DNA of 34,374 bases from a virus. Location of the stretch: positions 1 through 34,374 of the IMG/VR virus record IMGVR_UViG_3300007363_000058; one strand, 5' to 3'. The notes below the pieces were generated by a model. It was not told the origin of the DNA. It searched no databases and saw only the letters and a program-made list of their open reading frames with translations. Each line of letters starts with the position of its first letter. The stretch's first letter is position 1. Shown here piece after piece: positions 3,496 to 15,066 of this stretch. A program made the translations under genes and the position numbers.

Positions 3496-3797
3496 TGCCG
3501 CAGGAAATGACCCCTGCCCGCATCATGGGCTACCGCAAGATGGCCGACAATCGTCGCGGGCGTCGCTGCGTGAAGCTGTCGGTCAACGGAAACATGCATC
3601 CGTTGGTGCGACAGTTCTACGAACTGGTGAACGAGAACCCCTTGCTCACCTTAAAGGTGTTGTCGGAGAAGTCCGGCGTGCAGATCGACACGATGAGCCA
3701 ATGGCGATACCAACACTCGCCTGCGCTCGTCACCTTCGAGGCTGTCCTCAACGCTGCTGGCTACGAACTCTGCATCAAGAAGAGGAGGGACGCATGA
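3495..3797 (+). CDS. HTH (Cro/CI-like) DNA-binding protein
   Basis: A 100-aa protein whose C-terminal half is a helix-turn-helix of the XRE/Cro type: LTLKVLSEKSGVQIDTMSQW (51-70), followed by the typical extension FEAVLNAAGYELCIKK (81-96). The N-terminus is basic (YRKMADNRRGRRC). ATG 3495 overlaps the previous stop as TGATG and is preferred over a GTG at 3465 that would run deep into the nuclease gene; GGAGG lies about 13 bases upstream. It overlaps the methyltransferase start by 4 bases. Probably a phage regulator, possibly acting on the island, but no operator site could be identified. Confidence 0.82.
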   Translation: MPQEMTPARIMGYRKMADNRRGRRCVKLSVNGNMHPLVRQFYELVNENPLLTLKVLSEKSGVQIDTMSQWRYQHSPALVTFEAVLNAAGYELCIKKRRDA

Positions 3798-4312
3798 CCA
3801 CGCTTGCGCTCTACAAGCAGATGCATGCCGAGGGCAAGTTCCCCGGCCACAGCACCGAGAAGTGGTCCGACATCGTCGCCAAGGCCATCAAGGACTATGG
3901 AGCCAAGTCCATACTTGACTTCGGCAGCGGCAAGGGGATGCAGTACGACTCCCTGAAGCTGCACGAGAAGTGGGGCGTGGAGAGGCCGACGCTCTACGAC
4001 CCTGCGGTGCCGGGCATCGACAAGTTACCCAATCCGTTCAACGCATTCGATGGCGTGATCTGCCTCGACGTGCTTGAGCATCTTGAAGGCGACGAGTTGC
4101 GACGGGCGATCTTCGACGCAACGATCCGCGCCAAGCGTTTCGTGATCTTCGGTATCGCGACGTTCCCGGCCAAGAAGACGCTGCCGGATGGACGCAACGC
4201 TCACCTCACGATCTGGAGCCAAGATGTGTGGACCAGCTTCATCAACAGCCATCGCTTCATGGGAGATGCGCTGGTGATGGTGCATTTCGACGGAGGCCAT
4301 GATGGACGGTGA
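3794..4312 (+). CDS. Class I SAM-dependent methyltransferase
   Basis: A 172-aa methyltransferase of the Rossmann type. The SAM-binding glycine motif ILDFGSGKG is at residues 40-48 and the motif-IV/post-I block GVICLDVLEHLEGDELRRA at about 87-105, as in Methyltransf_11/UbiE-like small-molecule methyltransferases. No target-recognition domain is present, so a DNA base methyltransferase is unlikely; a sugar, metabolite or protein side chain is more likely. The ATG at 3794 has an excellent ribosome site (AGGAGGGA at 3783-3790). It overlaps both neighbours, and with the glycosyltransferase just downstream suggests a glycan- or nucleoside-modifying pair. Confidence 0.9.
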   Translation: MTTLALYKQMHAEGKFPGHSTEKWSDIVAKAIKDYGAKSILDFGSGKGMQYDSLKLHEKWGVERPTLYDPAVPGIDKLPNPFNAFDGVICLDVLEHLEGDELRRAIFDATIRAKRFVIFGIATFPAKKTLPDGRNAHLTIWSQDVWTSFINSHRFMGDALVMVHFDGGHDGR

Positions 4313-5045
4313 TCCCTTTACCTACTGGATAGGTTTCGATGGCAGGGAGCCGGACGCATACGATGTCTGTTCGTTCTCCTGCCAGCGAAAGAGCAGCATC
4401 CCCCTTCATGTGCGGGCCTTGCGCCACAAGGAACTCCGCAGCGCAGGAGTGTTCACGCGCAGTTGGGGCGTAGACCCCATGACTGGGCAGATGTTCGACA
4501 TGATCGACAAGCTGCCGTTCTCCACGGAGTTTGCGTTCACGAGGTTCCTCGTCCCGCATCTTCAGGGATACAAGGGATGGGCGTTGTTCACGGACTGCGA
4601 TGTCCTTTGGCTTGACGACATCGGCAGCCTCGTGAAGGAGGCGGACGACAAGTACGCGGTCATGGTCGTGAAGCAGATCCACATGCCGCAAAACCAGATC
4701 AAGATGGATGGTCAGGTCCAAAAGCCGTACCCACGGAAGAACTGGTCATCCGTCATCCTCTACAACTGCGGACACCCGTCAAACCGTGTTCTAACGCGCG
4801 ACTTCGTGAACAACGCGACTGGACGCGAGCTTCACACCTTCTCTTGGCTGAAGGACAGCGAGATCGGTGACCTGTCGCCGGGTTGGAACTTCCTCGTTGG
4901 TCACACCAAGCACAACGTGAAGCCTCGCCTGATGCACTTCACGGATGGTGGCCCGTGGTTCCAGCACATGAAGGACACGCCGTTCGCGGGCTGGTGGACG
5001 ACCGAGTACTACTTGATGCTCAAGCAGCAGGGGAAGTACGAGTGA
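4299..5045 (+). CDS. GT-A type glycosyltransferase
   Basis: A 248-aa putative glycosyltransferase with a nucleotide-diphospho-sugar (GT-A) fold. It opens with FTYWIGFDGREPDAYDV and has the metal/sugar-nucleotide motif LFTDCDVLWLDDI with DCD at 99-101, preceded by FTRFLVPHL (80-88), a layout seen in GT8-like and related phage enzymes. The C-terminal half has a conserved HFTDGGPWF block. ATG 4299 is followed by a second ATG at 4302; GGAGG around 4290-4294 serves either. It overlaps the methyltransferase by 14 bases and the FkbM-like gene by 4. Acceptor unknown: host surface glycan, virion protein or modified DNA are all possible. Confidence 0.86.
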   Translation: MMDGDPFTYWIGFDGREPDAYDVCSFSCQRKSSIPLHVRALRHKELRSAGVFTRSWGVDPMTGQMFDMIDKLPFSTEFAFTRFLVPHLQGYKGWALFTDCDVLWLDDIGSLVKEADDKYAVMVVKQIHMPQNQIKMDGQVQKPYPRKNWSSVILYNCGHPSNRVLTRDFVNNATGRELHTFSWLKDSEIGDLSPGWNFLVGHTKHNVKPRLMHFTDGGPWFQHMKDTPFAGWWTTEYYLMLKQQGKYE

Positions 5046-5632
5046 AGAAGATCGGAGACTGGTGGCTGCCGAGCGCAGACCAGCATTTCGTTGGCGACAT
5101 CACGGGATACCAGAAGGCGTCCTACGATCTCGCGATGCAGCATGTCAGCAAGCTGGGAATGGCGATTGATGTCGGCGCGCATGTCGGCATCTTCTCTCGC
5201 CGCATGACGGACGACTTCTCGCTTGTGCATGCGTTCGAGCCCGACTCCCACAACTACGCATGCCTCGTTCGCAACGTCACGTCTTGGACGCTCAAGGCGA
5301 CGTATGGGGCGGCTGGAGCGCAGCGTGGCATGGGCAGCGTGCGCGTGGATGCCATCTCGAACACAGGCGCTCGCGGGTTCGAGTCGTCGGCCATTGGCAG
5401 CGTCCCGATGTATGCCATCGACGAGTTCAAGTACGAGAACCTTGGGCTTGTGAAGATCGACACGGAGGGCTTCGAGCATCGCGTGATTGTCGGTGCCCTT
5501 GAGACCCTCAAGATCTATAAGCCCGTGCTGATCGTCGAGCGACCGAGCGAGGAGGCCGTCAGGGTGCTGATCCTTCTCGGGTACAGGCTTGCCGATGTCG
5601 TCGGCAAGGACAGCGTCTTCGTGGAGAAGTGA
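5042..5632 (+). CDS. FkbM-family methyltransferase
   Basis: A 196-aa SAM-dependent methyltransferase of the FkbM type, which usually O-methylates sugars or polyketides. Visible blocks are motif I AIDVGAHVGIFS (41-52), the acidic strand VHAFEPDS (62-69), and the C-terminal FkbM signature YAIDEFKYENLGLVKIDTEG (124-143) followed by FEHRVIVGA. The segment between the SAM-binding half and the signature is shorter than usual. The start is GTG 5042, overlapping the preceding stop as GTGA; AGGGGAAG just upstream can act as ribosome site. It ends one base before the transporter gene. Its pairing with a glycosyltransferase suggests methylation of a sugar. Confidence 0.92.
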   Translation: MKKIGDWWLPSADQHFVGDITGYQKASYDLAMQHVSKLGMAIDVGAHVGIFSRRMTDDFSLVHAFEPDSHNYACLVRNVTSWTLKATYGAAGAQRGMGSVRVDAISNTGARGFESSAIGSVPMYAIDEFKYENLGLVKIDTEGFEHRVIVGALETLKIYKPVLIVERPSEEAVRVLILLGYRLADVVGKDSVFVEK

Positions 5633-5633
5633 C

Positions 5634-6134
5634 ATGCGGGTGTTTCATGCATACAAGTTTTCAGTTTTGTACCTGTGTGCAATACCATTCACAAATTGGA
5701 TGTTTGCATACATTGGTGTCTTGAGGGTCCCATTTACGGACTATGTGTTCCATCCTTTGGCATTTCTTGTTGGGTTTTGGCTTGTCTTGAGGGATTTTGC
5801 CCATAGGGAGCTTGGCGACAGGTGGATCTTTGCCCCTGTATTTGCTGGCGTTGCTATTTCTTTCGCGACCTCATCTCCTCGCATCGCATTTGCCAGCGCA
5901 ATAGCGTTTCTTGTTTCTGAGCTTGTTGATTACGCAGTTTACAAGCTGTCGAAGCGACCGTTGCATCAGAGAATTGTGCTGTCTAGCGCGGCAAGTGTTC
6001 CTGTTGATAGCGTGATTTTCTCTGGGATGGCGTTTGGCTTGGCAAGCGTGAACCCGGTTACTTTCTTGATAATGCTGGCCGCAAAGATGTCTGGAGCCGT
6101 TGTTGTCGCGTTTGCGATTAGGAGGCTTCGGTGA
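5634..6134 (+). CDS. VUT/YhhQ-family transporter (7-deazaguanine precursor uptake)
   Basis: A 166-aa polytopic inner-membrane protein with about five hydrophobic segments. It matches the VUT (vitamin uptake transporter) family, whose Escherichia coli member YhhQ imports preQ0/preQ1. Diagnostic features are a charged Arg-Asp pair after a membrane helix (VLRDFAHRELGDRW, 51-64), ASAIAFLVSELVDYAVYKL (88-106) and SVPVDSVIFSGMAFG (121-135). ATG 5634 directly follows the previous stop. Base composition drops sharply: bases 5641-5700 are 35% GC and 5701-5760 are 45%, against about 60% in flanking genes, which points to recent acquisition. It overlaps the DpdA-like gene by 4 bases, so a joint function in 7-deazaguanine salvage is inferred. 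Confidence 0.85.
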   Translation: MRVFHAYKFSVLYLCAIPFTNWMFAYIGVLRVPFTDYVFHPLAFLVGFWLVLRDFAHRELGDRWIFAPVFAGVAISFATSSPRIAFASAIAFLVSELVDYAVYKLSKRPLHQRIVLSSAASVPVDSVIFSGMAFGLASVNPVTFLIMLAAKMSGAVVVAFAIRRLR

Positions 6135-6817
6135 CTATCCATTATCACGGCACTCCAATCACGCCAACAGACGCCTTATACAAGCTTTCTGGTCGAAATT
6201 TCTGCGTGTCGTTTGCCAACCCGCAGCAGGTAGCCCATGTCCACAAAATTGGACAGAGTGTGATGCTTGACAATGGTGCATTCACGGCATGGTCCAGCGG
6301 CGCGTCTCCTGATTGGAGAAAATATTACTCTTGGGCAGAGAAGTGGCTTGACCACAGGACAACGTGGTGCGTCATTCCTGACGCGATTGACGGCGACGAA
6401 GATGCAAACGACGCCTTGATAAGGGATTGGCCCCATGGGAACCGGGGGGCTCCTGTGTGGCACCTTCACGAAAGCATAGGCAGGCTTTTGGCGCTATCAA
6501 GCAAATGGGATCGCGTGTGCATTGGGAGTTCTGGGGATTATAAATCCGTTGGAACTCCTCGTTGGCACATGAAGATGATTGAGGCCATGAACGCATTGTG
6601 CGGAAACGGTCCATCGCCAGTATGGCTTCACATGCTTAGGGGAATGAACGTAGCGGATTCAATCTATCCATTTGCTTCTGTTGATTCGACTGACATTGCA
6701 AGAAACCATCATCTCGGAACATGCCCGTCATCCATGGCATCAAGGTGGGATTCATTGCAGTCTCCCGGGCGATGGGTAGTGAGGCCGGTCCAAGAAGATA
6801 TATTCGGAGGAAAGTGA
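6131..6817 (+). CDS. TGT/DpdA-like transglycosylase (7-deazaguanine DNA modification)
   Basis: A 228-aa protein that I read as a phage DpdA/tRNA-guanine-transglycosylase relative, exchanging guanine for a 7-deazaguanine base. Supporting blocks in order are MLDNGAFTAW (45-54, aligns with the family Asp and SGAF/SGGF loop), VIPDAIDGDE (81-90), a glycine substrate loop VCIGSSG (129-135) and FASVDSTDIARNH (181-193), which resembles the TGT 'DCVLPTRxaRN' segment. It lacks the zinc-binding Cys cluster of tRNA TGTs, as expected for compact phage members. GTG 6131 has GGAGG six bases upstream and overlaps the transporter as GTGA. GC is low (40% in 6661-6720). Substrate choice (DNA rather than tRNA) is inferred from the phage context. 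Confidence 0.78.
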   Translation: MTIHYHGTPITPTDALYKLSGRNFCVSFANPQQVAHVHKIGQSVMLDNGAFTAWSSGASPDWRKYYSWAEKWLDHRTTWCVIPDAIDGDEDANDALIRDWPHGNRGAPVWHLHESIGRLLALSSKWDRVCIGSSGDYKSVGTPRWHMKMIEAMNALCGNGPSPVWLHMLRGMNVADSIYPFASVDSTDIARNHHLGTCPSSMASRWDSLQSPGRWVVRPVQEDIFGGK

Positions 6818-6818
6818 C

Positions 6819-8786
6819 ATGAAAGTGATGATCTGCTCGTCGTGGTCGGAGGCGGGATTTGAACTCTACGGGCGTCGCTGGCTTGAGACGGCTGGCGAGC
6901 ATTGGGACCCGAGCATCGACATCAATGCCGTCAATGACAAGCAGTTGGACATGGACTCGGGGTTCCGCGAGTTCATGGTGCGTCATGCGGTTCGCAAGCT
7001 GGACCCCAAGCAGCCGGGATACGACTACCGTCAGGATCTCCTGCGCTTTGCCCACAAGGTCTTTGCGCTCAAGGTTGCGCTGGAGGATGCGACCGAGGAG
7101 GGCCACGACTGGCTGGTCTGGCTTGACGGCGATGTCGAGACCCGCGCCCCGCTCACGATGGACTTCCTCAAGCACATCCTTCCCGAGGACAAGGACGGGG
7201 TGCTTCTTTCTCGTGCGCGCACGGCTCCGCATCCAGAGTGCGGGTTCATGGCGTTCAACCTCCGTCGCAAGGGCGCTGACTTCCTCCGCAAGTTCATCGG
7301 CATGTACGTCAAGGACGACGTACTGAAGCTGGCGGAACTGCACGACAGCTACGTCTTCATGGTCTGCGTCATCGCCCACATGGAGAGCGACAAGAGCGAG
7401 TGGCACGACCTTTGCCCGGTTGGCGGTGGCCCGTATGGTCTGGACGCCTTCGAGGCCAGCCCGCTGGACGGCGTGTTCGTCCACAAGAAGGGCAACCGCA
7501 AGGCCGGTATGACCAACGCGGAGATCGTCCAGCGTCTGCTGGTCGGGGTCGAGCCCGTGTACATCAACCCAAGGGACTTCGACGGCAGCGTGCCGGAAAA
7601 TGCGGTCCCGGTAGTTGATTGCGACATGGTGCCGGTCGAGGACATCCGCCGCGCCATGCTGGCACTTGAGGACAAGCCATTGATTTTCATTGGCTTTTAC
7701 TCCTCGGACGAGAACGGGAAGCACATCGACACAAGCCGATTTGGCATCAATGCGGTGAGGACCGACACGATTGCCTTTGAGTCCGTGGAGCGGGCCAAGG
7801 ACGGCCTTGGGTTCATCCATGTTGCCGTGACCAAGGACTTTCCGGTGATCCCGGACGATCTCCCCGTCTTCCATCAGCGCCAGATGTCTGCCGTGAAGAA
7901 GGAGGAGATCAAGGCGATCACGAACAACTCCTACCAGACGAACATGGTTGTCCAGACGCAGAACTGCGTCCCGCACGAGACCATTCAGTCCAACATCAAG
8001 GCCAATCTCGGCCAGATCCAGAACTGGGTCAGGTACACCCGGCACCACATGCAGCGGGCCATCATCGTCTCTGCCGGTCCTTCGCTGGACATGCCGGAGA
8101 CCTTGGAGGCCATCCGCAAGGAGGTAGACGCGGGCGCGGTGCTGTTCTGCGTCAAGCACAGCCACCAGAAGCTGATCGACGCCGGTCTGGTCCCGTGGGG
8201 TTGCGTCCTGCTTGATCCCCGTCCTCATGAGGGCATCAGTACCCATGGCAAGGCTCGTGCCGATCTCCTTCCGGCGGCCTATCCGGGCGTCCGGTACTTC
8301 TGCGCCTCGATGGTCGATCCCGGCGTCGTGAAGCGCCTGCTGGATACCGGAGGCAAGGTTTACGGCTGGCATGCAGCCGTTGGGGCTGACGAGAAAGAAG
8401 TCCTTCCTCCTGAACACCAGAAGTTCCTGATGGGGGGAGGATCTTCTTCTGCTGGACGCGCTATGATACTCGCGTGGCAGTTCCTAGGCTTCCAGTCGAT
8501 TGGTCTATACGGCTTTGACTCCTGTCATCTGGACGAGAGCAAGCTAGACAAGTCCGCTCGACATCAGGATGGCACCCCCAAGTACGTCCTCATGGACGTG
8601 GCCGTCGGGGGTAGGAACCGGCAGTTCTGGACCGACAGGGACATCCTCTGTCAGGCGCAGGACTTCACCCGGTTCCTTCAGGAGAGCCCGTGGATCCAAT
8701 GGGACGCCCACGGTCCCGGCATGGTTGCGTGGTTGTGGCAGAACACTCGTGGCATCATGCCAACCCTTGAGGAGACCTACACATGA
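6819..8786 (+). CDS. GT-A glycosyltransferase fused to MptE/DUF115-like domain
   Basis: A 655-aa two-domain protein. Residues 1 to about 240 look like a GT-A glycosyltransferase with the motif WLVWLDGDVETRAPL and DGD at 103-105. Residues about 410-570 resemble the 6-hydroxymethylpterin pyrophosphokinase MptE-like (DUF115) domain also found in Maf-type glycosyltransferases: AIIVSAGPSLD (413-423), DAGLVPWGCVLLDP, then GGGSSSAGRAMILAWQF and IGLYGFDSC near 538-570. GC content returns to the phage norm (58% at 7021-7080). GGAGG precedes ATG 6819 with 8 bases between, and the portal gene overlaps its end by 4 bases. A nonulosonate or other sugar transferase role is possible; the acceptor is unknown. 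Confidence 0.85.
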   Translation: MKVMICSSWSEAGFELYGRRWLETAGEHWDPSIDINAVNDKQLDMDSGFREFMVRHAVRKLDPKQPGYDYRQDLLRFAHKVFALKVALEDATEEGHDWLVWLDGDVETRAPLTMDFLKHILPEDKDGVLLSRARTAPHPECGFMAFNLRRKGADFLRKFIGMYVKDDVLKLAELHDSYVFMVCVIAHMESDKSEWHDLCPVGGGPYGLDAFEASPLDGVFVHKKGNRKAGMTNAEIVQRLLVGVEPVYINPRDFDGSVPENAVPVVDCDMVPVEDIRRAMLALEDKPLIFIGFYSSDENGKHIDTSRFGINAVRTDTIAFESVERAKDGLGFIHVAVTKDFPVIPDDLPVFHQRQMSAVKKEEIKAITNNSYQTNMVVQTQNCVPHETIQSNIKANLGQIQNWVRYTRHHMQRAIIVSAGPSLDMPETLEAIRKEVDAGAVLFCVKHSHQKLIDAGLVPWGCVLLDPRPHEGISTHGKARADLLPAAYPGVRYFCASMVDPGVVKRLLDTGGKVYGWHAAVGADEKEVLPPEHQKFLMGGGSSSAGRAMILAWQFLGFQSIGLYGFDSCHLDESKLDKSARHQDGTPKYVLMDVAVGGRNRQFWTDRDILCQAQDFTRFLQESPWIQWDAHGPGMVAWLWQNTRGIMPTLEETYT

Positions 8787-11110
8787 ACGACGACCGCAAG
8801 TGGCGAGGGGACAACGAGAAGGTCAAGCGCACCAAGCGACAGGCCCTGAACGCCCTGCTCGTCAACATTGCGGAGAGCCTTGAGGAGAAGGAGCGGGAGT
8901 CCATTGCACAGGTCTGCATGGAGGACTTCCGCGCGGACCGCGACAGCCGCACCGAGTGGGATGCGATGCATGCCGATTGGGTGGCGGTCTACAACCAGCA
9001 GGATGCCCCCTACAACCGCCCGTGGCCGGGCTCGTCGGATGAGTCGCTTGGCCTGCTGACGGAAGCATGCAACTCGTTTCAGGCTCGCGCCTACAAGGCG
9101 TTCTTCTCGTCTCGCATGCCCGTGGCTGCCGTCTCCACAAACCCGTCCATGCCCGGGTCGTCCGAGCGCGCCAAGCGGGTCAGCCAGTTCCTCCAATGGT
9201 CCCTGTTCTTCAAGGACCAGACCTACAAGGAGGACAAGGCGGCGATGCTGCTGCGCGTGGCAGTCCACGGCAGCGACTTCTCGAAGACGTACTTTGACCC
9301 GGTGATGAACCGGATTGTCACCCGCCCCGTGCGTGCAGAGGACCTGTACGTCCCCTACCACATCGGTCCCATCAACATCGAAGACGTTCACCGCAAGACG
9401 GAACTCATCCACATCCAGTTGAACGAGGGCCGCATCCGGGCGTCCGAGGGCTACTTCCTGTTCCCGCCCGAGCCCATGATGATTGGGCAGATCGAGTCCC
9501 CGATCCAACAGCAGAACGACCGCGACGGCGGCATCCATCCGTCCTCGACACATAGCGAGGACATGGCCCAGATCATCGAGCAGCACCGGGACCTCGACCT
9601 AGACGGTGACGGCATTGCCGAGCCCTACAAGGTCTGGGTTGACGTGACCTCGGAGAAGCTGCTCCGCATCGAGGTCCGCTATGAGGTGGACGAGTATGGC
9701 CGCCCGCTGAATGGCCGGATGCCCATCGAGGAGTACACCCACTACCGCTTCCTCGCGAACCCGGATGGCTTCTACGGTTACGGTCTGGGTTTCCTGCTGG
9801 GCAAGACGAACATCGCCATCAACAAGCTCCTGCGCCAGTTCATCGACGCCACGACCCTGTCGATCCACGGCAACATGAGCGGGTTCATCTCGGAGGCCCT
9901 GAACATCAGCAAGGGGCCGGTGAAGATCGAACTCGGCAGCCTGAAGACCGTCTCCGCAAGTACCGACGACATCCAGAAGGGCATCAAGACGCTCTCCTTC
10001 CCCGCCCCGCCTCCGACGCTGATGCAGGCCATCGCGCAGTTGGAGACCCGCGCCCAGCGCATCGGAGCCACGACGGATGCCGCAGCCGGTGACGTGAACA
10101 AGGTCTTCCAGCCCACGACCATCCAGACCATGGTCGAGCAGTCGCTGGTGATGTTCACGAGCGTTCAGGAGTTCCTGCTGCACTCGTGGAGCAAGGAACT
10201 GAACAAGATCTATCGCCTGCATGGGATCTACTTCCGTGGCATCGAGGGCTTCATCTCGATCAGCCCGGAAGGTCCTCAGGAGATGGTTGTGACGGAGCAG
10301 GACTTTGCCGACGACATGCTCATCATGCCAATCGCAGACCCCCGCATGATGAGCCAGCAGAGCCGCCTCCAGAAGGCCCAGTTCCTGTTTGAGTTTGCCC
10401 AGAAGAATCCGCTCGTGGGCAACAACCCTGAGGTCCTCCTTGCGGTGTCGAGGAGGCTGCTTGAGGAGATGGAAATCGATGGAATTGACAACATTCTTCC
10501 GAAATCTGTGGACGAACTTCCGCAACCTGCGCCAGATCCGAAGGTCATGGCGGAGCAGGCTAAGGTCGAAGTCGAACAGCAGAAGCTCCAGCTAGACGCG
10601 CAGAGGGCGCAGCAGGAGGTTCAGCTTGAGGTGCAGAAGATGCAGGCAGACCAGCAGATGAAGCAGGCGTCCATGATGGGCGACCAGCAGCTTCAACAGA
10701 TGCGGATCGACAACGAGCGCGCCATGCAGGAACTCCGCATCCAGAACGAGGCGGAGATCGCCCGCATGAAGCAGGAGTTCGAGAACCTGCGGATGCAGCA
10801 GGAACTTGCGGCCAAGCAGCAGATGGAAGCTCAGAAGGCCAAGATCGAGGCTGACACCAAGGTCATGGTGGCGCGCATTGGTGCTGCCGGTGCAGATGTC
10901 CCAGAGATAGATGCGGTGAAGCCATTTGCTCAGCAGATGGGTGAAGACCTGCGCTCCATGCTTGAACGCATGGACCAGCAGAACGCTGCTCGCGACCAAC
11001 GGATGATGAGCATGATTCAGGCGATGATGCAGTCCATGACCTCTCCTCGTCGAATTGTTCGCGGGCCTGATGGCCGGGCCATGGGCGTGGAGATGGGTGG
11101 GGCGCAGTAA
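8783..11110 (+). CDS. Portal protein
   Basis: A 775-aa portal, forming the dodecameric ring at the capsid vertex through which DNA is packaged and ejected. The N-terminal part has the pattern of large podoviral-type portals (DRDSRTEWDAMHADW, PWPGSSDESLGLLTEACNSF), followed by a core with AEDLYVPY and a clip/wing region. Residues about 580-710 are a long Gln/Met/Glu-rich helical coiled coil (QQKLQLDAQRAQQEVQLEVQ), matching the C-terminal barrel seen in long portals such as that of P22. Position after the terminase and accessory island and before capsid genes fits. It starts at ATG 8783 with a 4-base overlap and its TAA shares an A with the next ATG. Confidence 0.94.
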   Translation: MNDDRKWRGDNEKVKRTKRQALNALLVNIAESLEEKERESIAQVCMEDFRADRDSRTEWDAMHADWVAVYNQQDAPYNRPWPGSSDESLGLLTEACNSFQARAYKAFFSSRMPVAAVSTNPSMPGSSERAKRVSQFLQWSLFFKDQTYKEDKAAMLLRVAVHGSDFSKTYFDPVMNRIVTRPVRAEDLYVPYHIGPINIEDVHRKTELIHIQLNEGRIRASEGYFLFPPEPMMIGQIESPIQQQNDRDGGIHPSSTHSEDMAQIIEQHRDLDLDGDGIAEPYKVWVDVTSEKLLRIEVRYEVDEYGRPLNGRMPIEEYTHYRFLANPDGFYGYGLGFLLGKTNIAINKLLRQFIDATTLSIHGNMSGFISEALNISKGPVKIELGSLKTVSASTDDIQKGIKTLSFPAPPPTLMQAIAQLETRAQRIGATTDAAAGDVNKVFQPTTIQTMVEQSLVMFTSVQEFLLHSWSKELNKIYRLHGIYFRGIEGFISISPEGPQEMVVTEQDFADDMLIMPIADPRMMSQQSRLQKAQFLFEFAQKNPLVGNNPEVLLAVSRRLLEEMEIDGIDNILPKSVDELPQPAPDPKVMAEQAKVEVEQQKLQLDAQRAQQEVQLEVQKMQADQQMKQASMMGDQQLQQMRIDNERAMQELRIQNEAEIARMKQEFENLRMQQELAAKQQMEAQKAKIEADTKVMVARIGAAGADVPEIDAVKPFAQQMGEDLRSMLERMDQQNAARDQRMMSMIQAMMQSMTSPRRIVRGPDGRAMGVEMGGAQ

Positions 11111-12258
11111 TGGCCCACATCGTCAAGGATAGGGTCAAGGAGACGACGACCACAGCAGGCACCGGAAGCATTGCGCTTGACGGTGCCGCGACCGGCTTCG
11201 TCGCGTTCTCGTCCGTCTGCTCAAACAACGACACCGTTCAGTACGCCATCGTCGAGCAGAGCGGCCCGGAGTGGGAGGTCGGCCTCGGCACTTGGAAGAC
11301 CGGCAACACGCTTGAGCGCACGACGGTCTATGCGTCGAGCAATGCCGGTGCTGCGGTCAACTTCGGTGCGGGAACGAAGGATGTGTTCCTCACGATGGCT
11401 GCGTTCTCTCAGGACATAGATGTGCAGGAGTTCACGACGCCGGGAAGCAGTACATGGACGAAGCCGCCGTGGGCTAGATGGGTGCGCGTCGAGCTTATAG
11501 GCGGCGGCGGCGGCGGCGGCAGCGGAGCGCGTCAAGCTACGACGACGGCTCGCTTTGGCGGTGGCGCTGGCGCAGGCGCTGCTTACACGGTCATCACGGT
11601 CATGGCGTCAGAAGTCCCAGACACGGCAACCGTTGTTGTCGGCGCTGGCGGGGCTGGCGGAGGAAGTCGAACGACTGATTCAACCAATGGCGCAACCGGA
11701 GGAAATGGTCAGGACTCGACTTTTGGATCGTTGTTCAGGGCGCGTGCAATGAACGGTGGAGCTGGCGGAACGACAACCGGCGGAGGAGGTGCAACGGCCC
11801 TTAGCATAAGCGGAAGCCCTTATCAGTCAGTTTCTGCGGCGGGTGGGTCTGGTGTTGCAGGTTCTGGAACTTCGGGAACGTCTGGAACAGCAAATGCCAC
11901 GAACTCAAACACCGGAGGTGGCGGTGGAGGCGGGGCAAGCAGTACTTCAACAGTCACTTCCAACGGCGGATCAGGCGGTTCGTTAGACAGCGGAGCTATT
12001 CATACTGGCAGTACAGCATCAAACAACGGAATTGGAGGTGGGTCCGGGTCTGATGGAGTTGTGCTGTATATAGGTGGACGCCCAATTGGGCGCGGCGGCG
12101 GTGGCGGATCGTATGCAACTGGCGTCGCTACCGGATCTGGAGGGAAGGGTGGCATAGGTGCTGGCGGAGGCGGAGGCGCGGCCAGCGACAACGGTTTTGC
12201 AAGCGGCGCTGGAGGAGACGGCGGCAATGGCTGGGCGAGGATCACGTCATGGCGGTGA
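11110..12258 (+). CDS. Glycine-rich tail/adhesin-like protein
   Basis: A 382-aa protein in two parts. Residues 1 to about 105 are a phage tail-type beta module ending in WEVGLGTWKTGNTLERTTVY and SSNAGAAVNF, a motif common at the start of tail proteins. From about 107 it is a glycine-rich domain opening with EFTTPGSSTWTKPPWARWVR, then runs of Gly (LIGGGGGGGSG at 129-139) and many GGAGG/GGGGG blocks to the C-terminus (GGDGGNGWARITSW). Such domains occur in phage adhesins and can form polyglycine-II bundles. The exposed role is inferred as receptor binding or tail decoration. ATG 11110 overlaps the portal stop (TAATG). Unusually, it is next to the portal rather than in the distal tail-fibre module. 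Confidence 0.82.
   Translation: MAHIVKDRVKETTTTAGTGSIALDGAATGFVAFSSVCSNNDTVQYAIVEQSGPEWEVGLGTWKTGNTLERTTVYASSNAGAAVNFGAGTKDVFLTMAAFSQDIDVQEFTTPGSSTWTKPPWARWVRVELIGGGGGGGSGARQATTTARFGGGAGAGAAYTVITVMASEVPDTATVVVGAGGAGGGSRTTDSTNGATGGNGQDSTFGSLFRARAMNGGAGGTTTGGGGATALSISGSPYQSVSAAGGSGVAGSGTSGTSGTANATNSNTGGGGGGGASSTSTVTSNGGSGGSLDSGAIHTGSTASNNGIGGGSGSDGVVLYIGGRPIGRGGGGGSYATGVATGSGGKGGIGAGGGGGAASDNGFASGAGGDGGNGWARITSWR
11500..11520 (+). repeat. (GGC)7 trinucleotide repeat
   Basis: Seven perfect GGC units encode the seven-glycine run at residues 131-137 of the glycine-rich protein. Length change here would add or remove glycines without shifting frame. Confidence 0.9.
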
Positions 12259-14748: not shown

Positions 14749-15066
14749 ATGAGCAAGAAACTGAAACCCTTGTTCGCAAGGGTCGTCGTCCGCGCTGAGA
14801 CGCTACAGGCGTCCATCGCAACCAAGTTCTCCGGCCTGTCCAAGATGGGCTTCGAGATTCCCAAGACCGTTGAAGAGAAGATGATCCCCGACGAGGGCAT
14901 CGTCATTTCCGTGGGTGAAGCCTGCGAGGTGATGAAGCCCGGTGACAGGGTCCTGTTCGGCAAGTGGGCGGCCAAGCCCATCGCCTTTGAGCCGGGCCTC
15001 TACGTCATGCAGGAAGAGGACATCATCGGAATCATCGAGGATGACGGGAAGGCGGTGGCCGCATGA
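14749..15066 (+). CDS. GroES-like co-chaperonin
   Basis: A 105-aa GroES/Cpn10-type protein. It opens with a typical strand LKPLFARVVVRAE (5-17), has an extended mobile-loop region (about 18-45), and then the family core DEGIVISVGE (48-57), VMKPGDRVLFGKWAA (61-75) and LYVMQEEDIIGIIED (84-98). Phage GroES analogues such as T4 gp31 redirect the host GroEL to fold the phage capsid protein. Its place as first gene of the scaffold-capsid cassette supports that role. No GroEL is present. ATG 14749 has a good ribosome site and the gene overlaps the scaffold by 4 bases. Confidence 0.9.
   Translation: MSKKLKPLFARVVVRAETLQASIATKFSGLSKMGFEIPKTVEEKMIPDEGIVISVGEACEVMKPGDRVLFGKWAAKPIAFEPGLYVMQEEDIIGIIEDDGKAVAA

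What the first reader, a model, noticed from the sequence alone, without database searches (positions are those of the whole stretch)
5634..6817. Minimal 7-deazaguanine salvage module: VUT/YhhQ-type transporter coupled to a DpdA/TGT-like enzyme
Seen: a 166-aa polytopic protein with VUT-family blocks overlaps by 4 bases a 228-aa protein with TGT/DpdA-like blocks (MLDNGAF, GSSG, VDSTDIARNH). Known: YhhQ of E. coli imports preQ0/preQ1, and DpdA inserts 7-deazaguanines in DNA, including phage DNA, where they block restriction. No QueC/D/E/F-type biosynthesis gene is in the window. Inference: the phage may import or retain a host or environmental base and insert it in its genome, an 'import and insert' route without its own synthesis.
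Basis: partly seen in the sequence, partly recalled or inferred. Interest (0 to 1): 0.82.

Follow-up and report, generated by a model that had tools for sequence, protein, structure and literature searches.

The report
Phage cassette: base importer plus DNA-base swapper
A phage has acquired a neat two-gene cassette that probably lets the infected cell take up a modified guanine (a 7-deazaguanine) and swap it into phage DNA, most likely to dodge restriction enzymes; the idea is already in the literature, but here the pair shows up as a mobile unit whose importer is replaced, in related phages, by genes that make the base instead.

Summary
5634-6134 encodes a VUT/QPTR (YhhQ-family) membrane protein (Pfam Vut_1, 3e-10). 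6131-6817 encodes a short DpdA-type transglycosylase (phrog_887, 2.5e-53) predicted as an eight-strand TIM barrel whose closest solved folds are tRNA-guanine transglycosylases. Its TGT-like Asp residues (D47, D84, D185) are invariant in 114 homologues. A profile comparison ties it to the DpdA of phage CAjan, whose deletion abolishes dPreQ0.

The two genes are one acquired unit: third-position GC is 0.50-0.53 against a mean of 0.75 elsewhere, and a sister phage has the empty site. The 1185-bp insert sits between flanks that share AAGTGACATG.

In 206 loci with this short DpdA, 72 have VUT, always same-strand and within 631 bp; 35 have QueD-like genes (10 of them also QueE); none has both (clusters 48/24/0, Fisher p = 2.7e-6). 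No QueC was found. So the partner is either an importer or early synthesis genes. This supports "import and insert".

That hypothesis was published in 2019, and several deposited phages carry the pair. Substrate, DNA incorporation and anti-restriction effect remain untested, and the window is about three quarters of the genome. Verdict: a well-supported new member of a known kind.

The parts
5634..6134 (+). VUT/QPTR (COG1738, YhhQ-family) six-helix membrane protein, 166 aa; putative 7-deazaguanine precursor importer
   Evidence: Pfam Vut_1 3.1e-10 above curated cut-off; phrog_4899 2.3e-29; AlphaFold2 model pLDDT 92, closest solved folds ECF S-components, Z 9.2
6131..6817 (+). short DpdA/TGT-superfamily transglycosylase, 228 aa, GTG start, 4-base overlap with VUT; invariant D47, D84, H111, G132, D185
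   Evidence: phrog_887 2.5e-53; model pLDDT 95.8, eight-strand barrel; VIA-align top matches all TGT family, Z 14.9-13.7; hhalign to CAjan/EC151 DpdA 97.4%; invariants in 114 homologues
5634..6818 (.). 1185-bp acquired cassette (VUT + DpdA), inserted at an operon gene boundary
   Evidence: GC3 0.50/0.53 against mean 0.75, sd 0.064, min 0.58 in 33 other genes; sister locus L228 has the empty site, FkbM stop + C + ATG
5627..5636 (+). left copy of the junction repeat AAGTGACATG
   Evidence: 19-nt, 79% direct repeat with exact AAGTGACATG core, spacing 1185
6812..6821 (+). right copy of the junction repeat AAGTGACATG (single copy in the empty site of L228)

Best explanation
The pair is a mobile salvage-and-insert cassette. 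The VUT protein imports a 7-deazaguanine base (preQ0 or preQ1 most likely; inferred) into the infected cell. The short DpdA then exchanges guanine in phage DNA for that base by TGT chemistry, with D185 as the presumed nucleophile and D47 as general acid/base (inferred from motif correspondence with TGT/DpdA). The modified DNA would resist some host restriction enzymes (inferred from characterised DpdA phages). Shown here: family membership, fold, conserved acidic residues, co-transfer of the two genes as one unit, strict genetic linkage of VUT to this DpdA family, and replacement of VUT by QueD/QueE in other members. Not shown: transport, base identity, DNA incorporation, effect on restriction.
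For: Families. DpdA fold: top 28 chains aligned are all TGT family or the TGT-like Cap10, Z 14.9-13.7, above the first unrelated barrel at 13.4. Profile match to the DpdA of phages CAjan/EC151, 97.4%, E 1.2e-11, aligning D47 with D63 and D185 with D206; CAjan delta-dpdA loses dPreQ0 (PMC6884629). D47, D84, H111, G132, D185, S186 invariant in 114 homologues. Linkage: in 72 of 206 loci VUT lies within 631 bp on the same strand, never farther away. Exclusivity: VUT 48, QueD/QueE 24, neither 56, both 0 of 128 clusters, Fisher p 2.7e-6. Whole records: VUT-type 18/18 Vut_1 and 0/18 PTPS; QueD-type 10/11 PTPS and 0/11 Vut_1; QueC 0/47. Partner state changes at least 34 times on the DpdA tree. Acquired unit: composition, empty site. 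MED16, which carries a 36%-identical DpdA and no Que genes, has dADG at ~0.13% of G (PMC8306585).
Against: No experiment on this family's enzyme. MED16 DNA holds only traces of dADG and was cut by the G-containing-site enzymes tested apart from methylation-sensitive ones, so protection may be weak. Orion, a DpdA-only phage, had no modified base, although its DpdA belongs to another subgroup. The transporter scores below the NCBIfam equivalog cut-off, and COG1738 substrates vary and are hard to predict (PMC5372724, PMC11130926). Hosts often make preQ0 themselves (QueC clearly present in 5 of 8 VUT-type prophage hosts), so import may be unnecessary. 56 of 128 clusters carry DpdA with neither partner.
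Confidence: 0.66

Rival explanations
1. The transglycosylase acts on host tRNA rather than DNA: with the importer it raises queuosine-type tRNA modification to favour phage translation.
For: The fold is TGT-like and PHROGs calls the family queuine tRNA-ribosyltransferase. Hutinet et al. suggest that phages with preQ0 genes but no DpdA may boost host Q (PMC6884629).
Against: The protein ends soon after barrel strand 8. None of the 114 homologues has the CxCxxC zinc motif of bacterial TGT and Pfam TGT does not match. The profile match is to a DpdA genetically tied to DNA modification. All 18 host genomes tested already have a full TGT.
Confidence: 0.13
2. DpdA modifies phage DNA but uses host-made preQ0; VUT is an auxiliary that only matters in hosts lacking synthesis.
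For: QueC clearly present in 5 of 8 hosts of VUT-type prophages. 56 of 128 clusters have DpdA alone. The DpdA-only phages 7-11 and MED16 carry dADG.
Against: VUT is held tightly beside this DpdA in 48 clusters and moved with it as one unit here, which suggests a regular contribution.
Confidence: 0.15
3. The short DpdA has diverged to another use of 7-deazaguanine, such as base removal or interference with deazaguanine-based immunity (type IV CBASS Cap9/Cap10), and the transporter adjusts the free base pool.
For: Cap10 (9ntn), a TGT-fold enzyme acting in protein conjugation, is among the top fold matches (Z 14.4; PMC11996544).
Against: The acidic TGT/DpdA residues are invariant. Cap10 scores no better than TGTs. 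No PADLOC match for either protein.
Confidence: 0.04

Closest known systems
Phage DpdA singletons with YhhQ (Hutinet et al. 2019 'third group'); deposited examples PEAT2, Opt-719, Tbat1_6, RHph_N3_2, RHph_X2_30, Pam5
   Same: Same short DpdA family next to a VUT/DUF165 gene on the same strand: overlapping in PEAT2 and RHph_N3_2, within 500 bp in the others
   Different: A different phage backbone; here the pair is seen with its empty site and foreign composition. The 2019 paper reported no correlation of YhhQ with any phage group, whereas in this DpdA family VUT is strictly DpdA-linked and exclusive with QueD/QueE.
Pantoea phage MED16 DpdA (DpdA/TGT_1 cluster)
   Same: Homologous DpdA (36% identity over the aligned protein), no preQ0 synthesis genes; its DNA carries dADG (PMC8306585)
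   Different: 261 aa, no VUT among the annotated genes within 5 kb of dpdA
Queuovirinae preQ0 system (CAjan, EC151)
   Same: DpdA superfamily (hhalign 97.4%), VUT-type 'preQ0 transporter', same acidic motifs
   Different: Long DpdA (306 aa) with the full FolE-QueD-QueE-QueC set in the same cluster, so VUT and synthesis co-occur there
Bacterial/archaeal TGT (e.g. 1iq8, Z. mobilis TGT)
   Same: TIM barrel and, by motif, D102/D156/D280 counterparts
   Different: No zinc site, no extra tRNA-binding domain, no significant profile match to bacterial TGTs with a shallow alignment

Membership tests
DpdA / TGT superfamily | (beta/alpha)8 barrel of the TGT type | tested here: met
   Model pLDDT 95.8, pTM 0.91, eight strands; TGTs top the VIA-align list, Z 14.9-13.7, about 200 residues. 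Foldseek alone gave no E <= 0.001.
DpdA / TGT superfamily | Catalytic acidic residues (TGT D102, D156, D280 equivalents) | tested here: met
   D47 in LDNGAF, D84 and D185 invariant in 114 homologues; D47 and D185 align with D63 and D206 of CAjan DpdA. Equivalence to the TGT numbers is by motif, not by superposed coordinates.
DpdA (phage, DNA-acting) | Sequence-profile relationship to a DpdA with genetic proof | tested here: met
   hhalign to CAjan/EC151 DpdA, probability 97.4%, E 1.2e-11
DpdA (phage, DNA-acting) | 7-deazaguanine in phage DNA dependent on the gene | not testable with these tools
   Needs LC-MS of virion DNA
Bacterial TGT (PF01702, tRNA-acting) | CxCxxC...H zinc site and match to the Pfam TGT model | tested here: not met
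   No CxCxxC in any of 114 homologues; no Pfam match for the window protein
VUT / QPTR (COG1738, YhhQ) | Match to Vut_1 above the curated cut-off and six transmembrane helices | tested here: met
   41 against 27.2 bits; model with six long helices and an ECF S-component-like fold, Z 9.2, rmsd 4.7 over 157 residues
VUT / QPTR (COG1738, YhhQ) | NCBIfam equivalog TIGR00697 (queuosine precursor transporter) | tested here: inconclusive
   27.3 bits against a cut-off of 50.95: homologous, not called as equivalog
VUT / QPTR (COG1738, YhhQ) | Import of preQ0/preQ1/queuine | not testable with these tools
   Known for E. coli YhhQ (PMC5372724); not tested for a phage member here
preQ0-synthesising phage system | QueC/QueD/QueE/FolE in the genome | tested here: inconclusive
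   Absent from the window but the window is about 75% of the genome. Five near-complete same-backbone relatives have no PTPS or QueC match.

The most novel reading that the evidence does not exclude
Base supply is an exchangeable slot in a mobile phage DNA-modification cassette. The same short DpdA is paired either with an importer or with QueD/QueE, never both, so phages carrying the importer version would have DNA modification, and hence restriction resistance, that depends on the nutrients around the host cell.
Probability: 0.4. Interest if true: 0.68.

Novelty: new member of a known kind. Interest (0 to 1): 0.48.

Why it matters
Hutinet et al. left open whether DpdA-only phages take their base from the host or from outside. 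The strict VUT linkage, the exclusivity with QueD/QueE and a clean two-gene transfer make that question directly testable: two nearly isogenic phage backgrounds, with and without the cassette, exist in nature, and isolated phages with the same pair (PEAT2, RHph_N3_2, Pam5) can be grown with and without added precursor. If true, a phage's resistance to restriction would depend on a scavenged micronutrient.

Tried and rejected
(1) That the neighbouring methyltransferase, glycosyltransferase, FkbM and MptE-like (DUF115) genes belong to the module, e.g. glycosylating the base: rejected, because they are conserved in some 20 same-backbone loci that lack VUT and DpdA. (2) That the 655-aa MptE-like gene supplies a pterin precursor: rejected for the same reason. 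(3) preQ1 riboswitch or other known RNA in the window: Rfam scan found nothing. (4) A promoter of its own for the cassette: the consensus scan gave no more than shuffles. (5) Direct profile link to bacterial TGT: hhalign with eight TGT sequences found none. (6) PDB sequence search: nothing significant. (7) PADLOC: no match. (8) Host dependence: QueC is missing in 3/8 hosts of VUT-type prophages against 1/17 others (p 0.08), and a second VUT is present in about 7/8 against 4/17 (p 0.007); suggestive only, since several are MAGs, the second copy was not checked to be chromosomal, and kinship was not controlled. (9) The independent-pairs test of exclusivity on starred branches was underpowered (median p 0.25), so the Fisher value does not fully correct for relatedness.

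Full report
OBSERVATION. The first matches Pfam Vut_1 at 3.1e-10, above the curated cut-off, and phrog_4899 at 2.3e-29; the NCBIfam queuosine-precursor-transporter model matches only below its cut-off. The second has no Pfam match but hits phrog_887, 'queuine tRNA-ribosyltransferase', at 2.5e-53. The window is a 34,374-base IMG/VR virus record with terminase, portal, capsid and tail genes on the + strand. Same-backbone records of 44.5-46.3 kb show that roughly a quarter of the genome is missing.

FOLD AND ACTIVE SITE. AlphaFold2 with 114 homologues gives the 228-aa protein pLDDT 95.8 and pTM 0.91 with eight barrel strands. Foldseek found many TIM barrels without a significant E-value. VIA-align on the same candidates puts TGTs first: 1iq8 Z 14.9, 1j2b 14.6, the TGT-like Cap10 (9ntn) 14.4, Z. 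mobilis TGT about 14, with the first unrelated barrel at 13.4. G7, D47, D84, H111, G132, D185 and S186 are invariant in 114 homologues. LDNGAF and VDSTDIARN resemble the D102 and D280 motifs of Z. mobilis TGT (inference from motifs; TGT numbering is from my own knowledge). hhalign links the family to the 306-307-aa DpdA of phages CAjan and EC151 (97.4%, E 1.2e-11), aligning D47 with D63 and D185 with D206. CAjan without dpdA loses dPreQ0 (PMC6884629). The zinc motif of bacterial TGT is absent in all 114, so this is a DpdA-type enzyme, not a bacterial TGT. The VUT model (pLDDT 92) has six long helices and resembles ECF S-components (Z 9.2 to 5edl), as expected for this kind of small transporter.

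ONE ACQUIRED UNIT. GC at third positions is 0.50 and 0.53 in the two genes, against a mean of 0.75 (sd 0.064, minimum 0.58) in 33 other window genes. A sister phage, L228, is 97% and 95% identical over the flanks and has FkbM stop + C + ATG of the DUF115 gene with nothing between. The window differs by a 1185-bp insert whose ends share AAGTGACATG, the core of a 19-nt direct repeat with spacing 1185. Some 20 further same-backbone loci that span the site also lack the pair; the only other carriers found (L091, L227, L264) come from one contig that is identical to the window over these genes. The glycan-type genes around it (methyltransferase, glycosyltransferase, FkbM, MptE-like) are thus backbone genes, not part of the module.

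LINKAGE AND PARTNER EXCHANGE. I collected 206 loci with this short DpdA from viral contigs, bacterial genomes and annotated phages. VUT was found in 72; in every one it lies within 631 bp of DpdA on the same strand, upstream or downstream. QueD-like genes were found in 35 (10 of these also with QueE), within 632 bp on the same strand. No locus has both VUT and QueD/QueE. After clustering DpdA at 85% identity: 48 VUT, 24 QueD/QueE, 56 neither, 0 both (Fisher p = 2.7e-6; with at least 3 kb of flank on both sides 30/18/43/0, p = 2.8e-4). Pfam searches of 47 whole virus records agree: Vut_1 in 18/18 VUT-type and 0/11 QueD-type records; PTPS in 0/18 and 10/11; QueC in none. One QueE partner passes the NCBIfam equivalog cut-off (L162, 290 against 240 bits); two QueD partners examined are divergent, above the Pfam PTPS cut-off but far below the QueD equivalog. 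On the DpdA tree the partner state changes at least 34 times, and starred branches force at least 11 changes for VUT and 6 for QueD, so the partner has been swapped repeatedly. Relatedness is not fully corrected: the independent-pairs test on starred branches had too few pairs. The sample holds the best matches per scan and is biased to closer relatives.

MECHANISM. Best reading: VUT imports a 7-deazaguanine base and DpdA exchanges it for guanine in phage DNA. Shown: families, fold, conserved residues, linkage, alternation with QueD/QueE, co-transfer. Inferred: substrate, direction of transport, DNA as target, restriction resistance. In support, MED16, with a homologous DpdA and no Que genes, carries dADG at about 0.13% of G (PMC8306585). 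Against a strong protective effect, MED16 DNA was still cut by enzymes with G in their sites. QueD/QueE without QueC would depend on host QueC or yield 7-carboxy-7-deazaguanine; I could not tell which. Rivals are tRNA modification, use of host-made base with VUT as an accessory, and a diverged role in deazaguanine-based immunity.

NOVELTY. The concept is published: Hutinet et al. 2019 describe DpdA-only phages that could use host preQ0 or uptake of exogenous precursors and mention phage YhhQ, seeing no correlation with phage group. Deposited phages PEAT2, Opt-719, Tbat1_6, RHph_N3_2, RHph_X2_30 and Pam5 carry the same neighbours, mostly annotated piecemeal. A library search found no paper naming both genes together in these terms. 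Two relevant papers were not held and could not be read: the 2024 review on 7-deazaguanines in bacteria and phages and a 2023 paper looked up by DOI, so parts may already be reported. What looks new is the quantified linkage, the exclusivity with QueD/QueE within this DpdA family, and the clean empty-site evidence.

Noticed in passing
L063:3312-3659, L006:5708-6001, L033:1256-1948, L162:6628-7281: Short DpdA genes of other phages and prophages are paired with divergent PTPS/QueD-like genes, sometimes plus QueE, but never QueC or FolE nearby. Two PTPS-like proteins (L063, DMCA) appear to lack the usual Cys before HGH, so their chemistry may differ.
   Followed up: partly
window 3794-5632 and 6819-8786: Conserved operon of a methyltransferase, a phrog_28018 protein (glycosyltransferase-like by my reading), an FkbM methyltransferase and an MptE-like/DUF115 protein between terminase and portal in this phage group; perhaps glycan or virion decoration.
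   Followed up: partly
window 14749-15066: Phage-encoded GroES-like co-chaperonin (Pfam Cpn10, 7.7e-9) among the structural genes.
   Followed up: no
L034:6553-7239 and L034:7983-8678: Two short DpdA genes close together on the same strand in one phage contig; possible paralogues with different targets.
   Followed up: no
G001 contig C24, about 473050-479173: Bacterial genome segment with QueC, a partial TGT-family match and a VUT gene within about 6 kb; looks like a separate 7-deazaguanine island.
   Followed up: no
GenBank OR850331.1 (1719 bases): Record named 'Staphylococcus phage SA 1298 Kay' carries the Salmonella-phage type DpdA (same identity and E-value as BTP1); probably mislabelled or contaminated.
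   Followed up: no
window 11110-12258: Glycine-rich protein (Pfam Gly_rich_2, 3e-7) directly after the portal gene, with unusually low third-position GC (0.58) for this phage.
   Followed up: no
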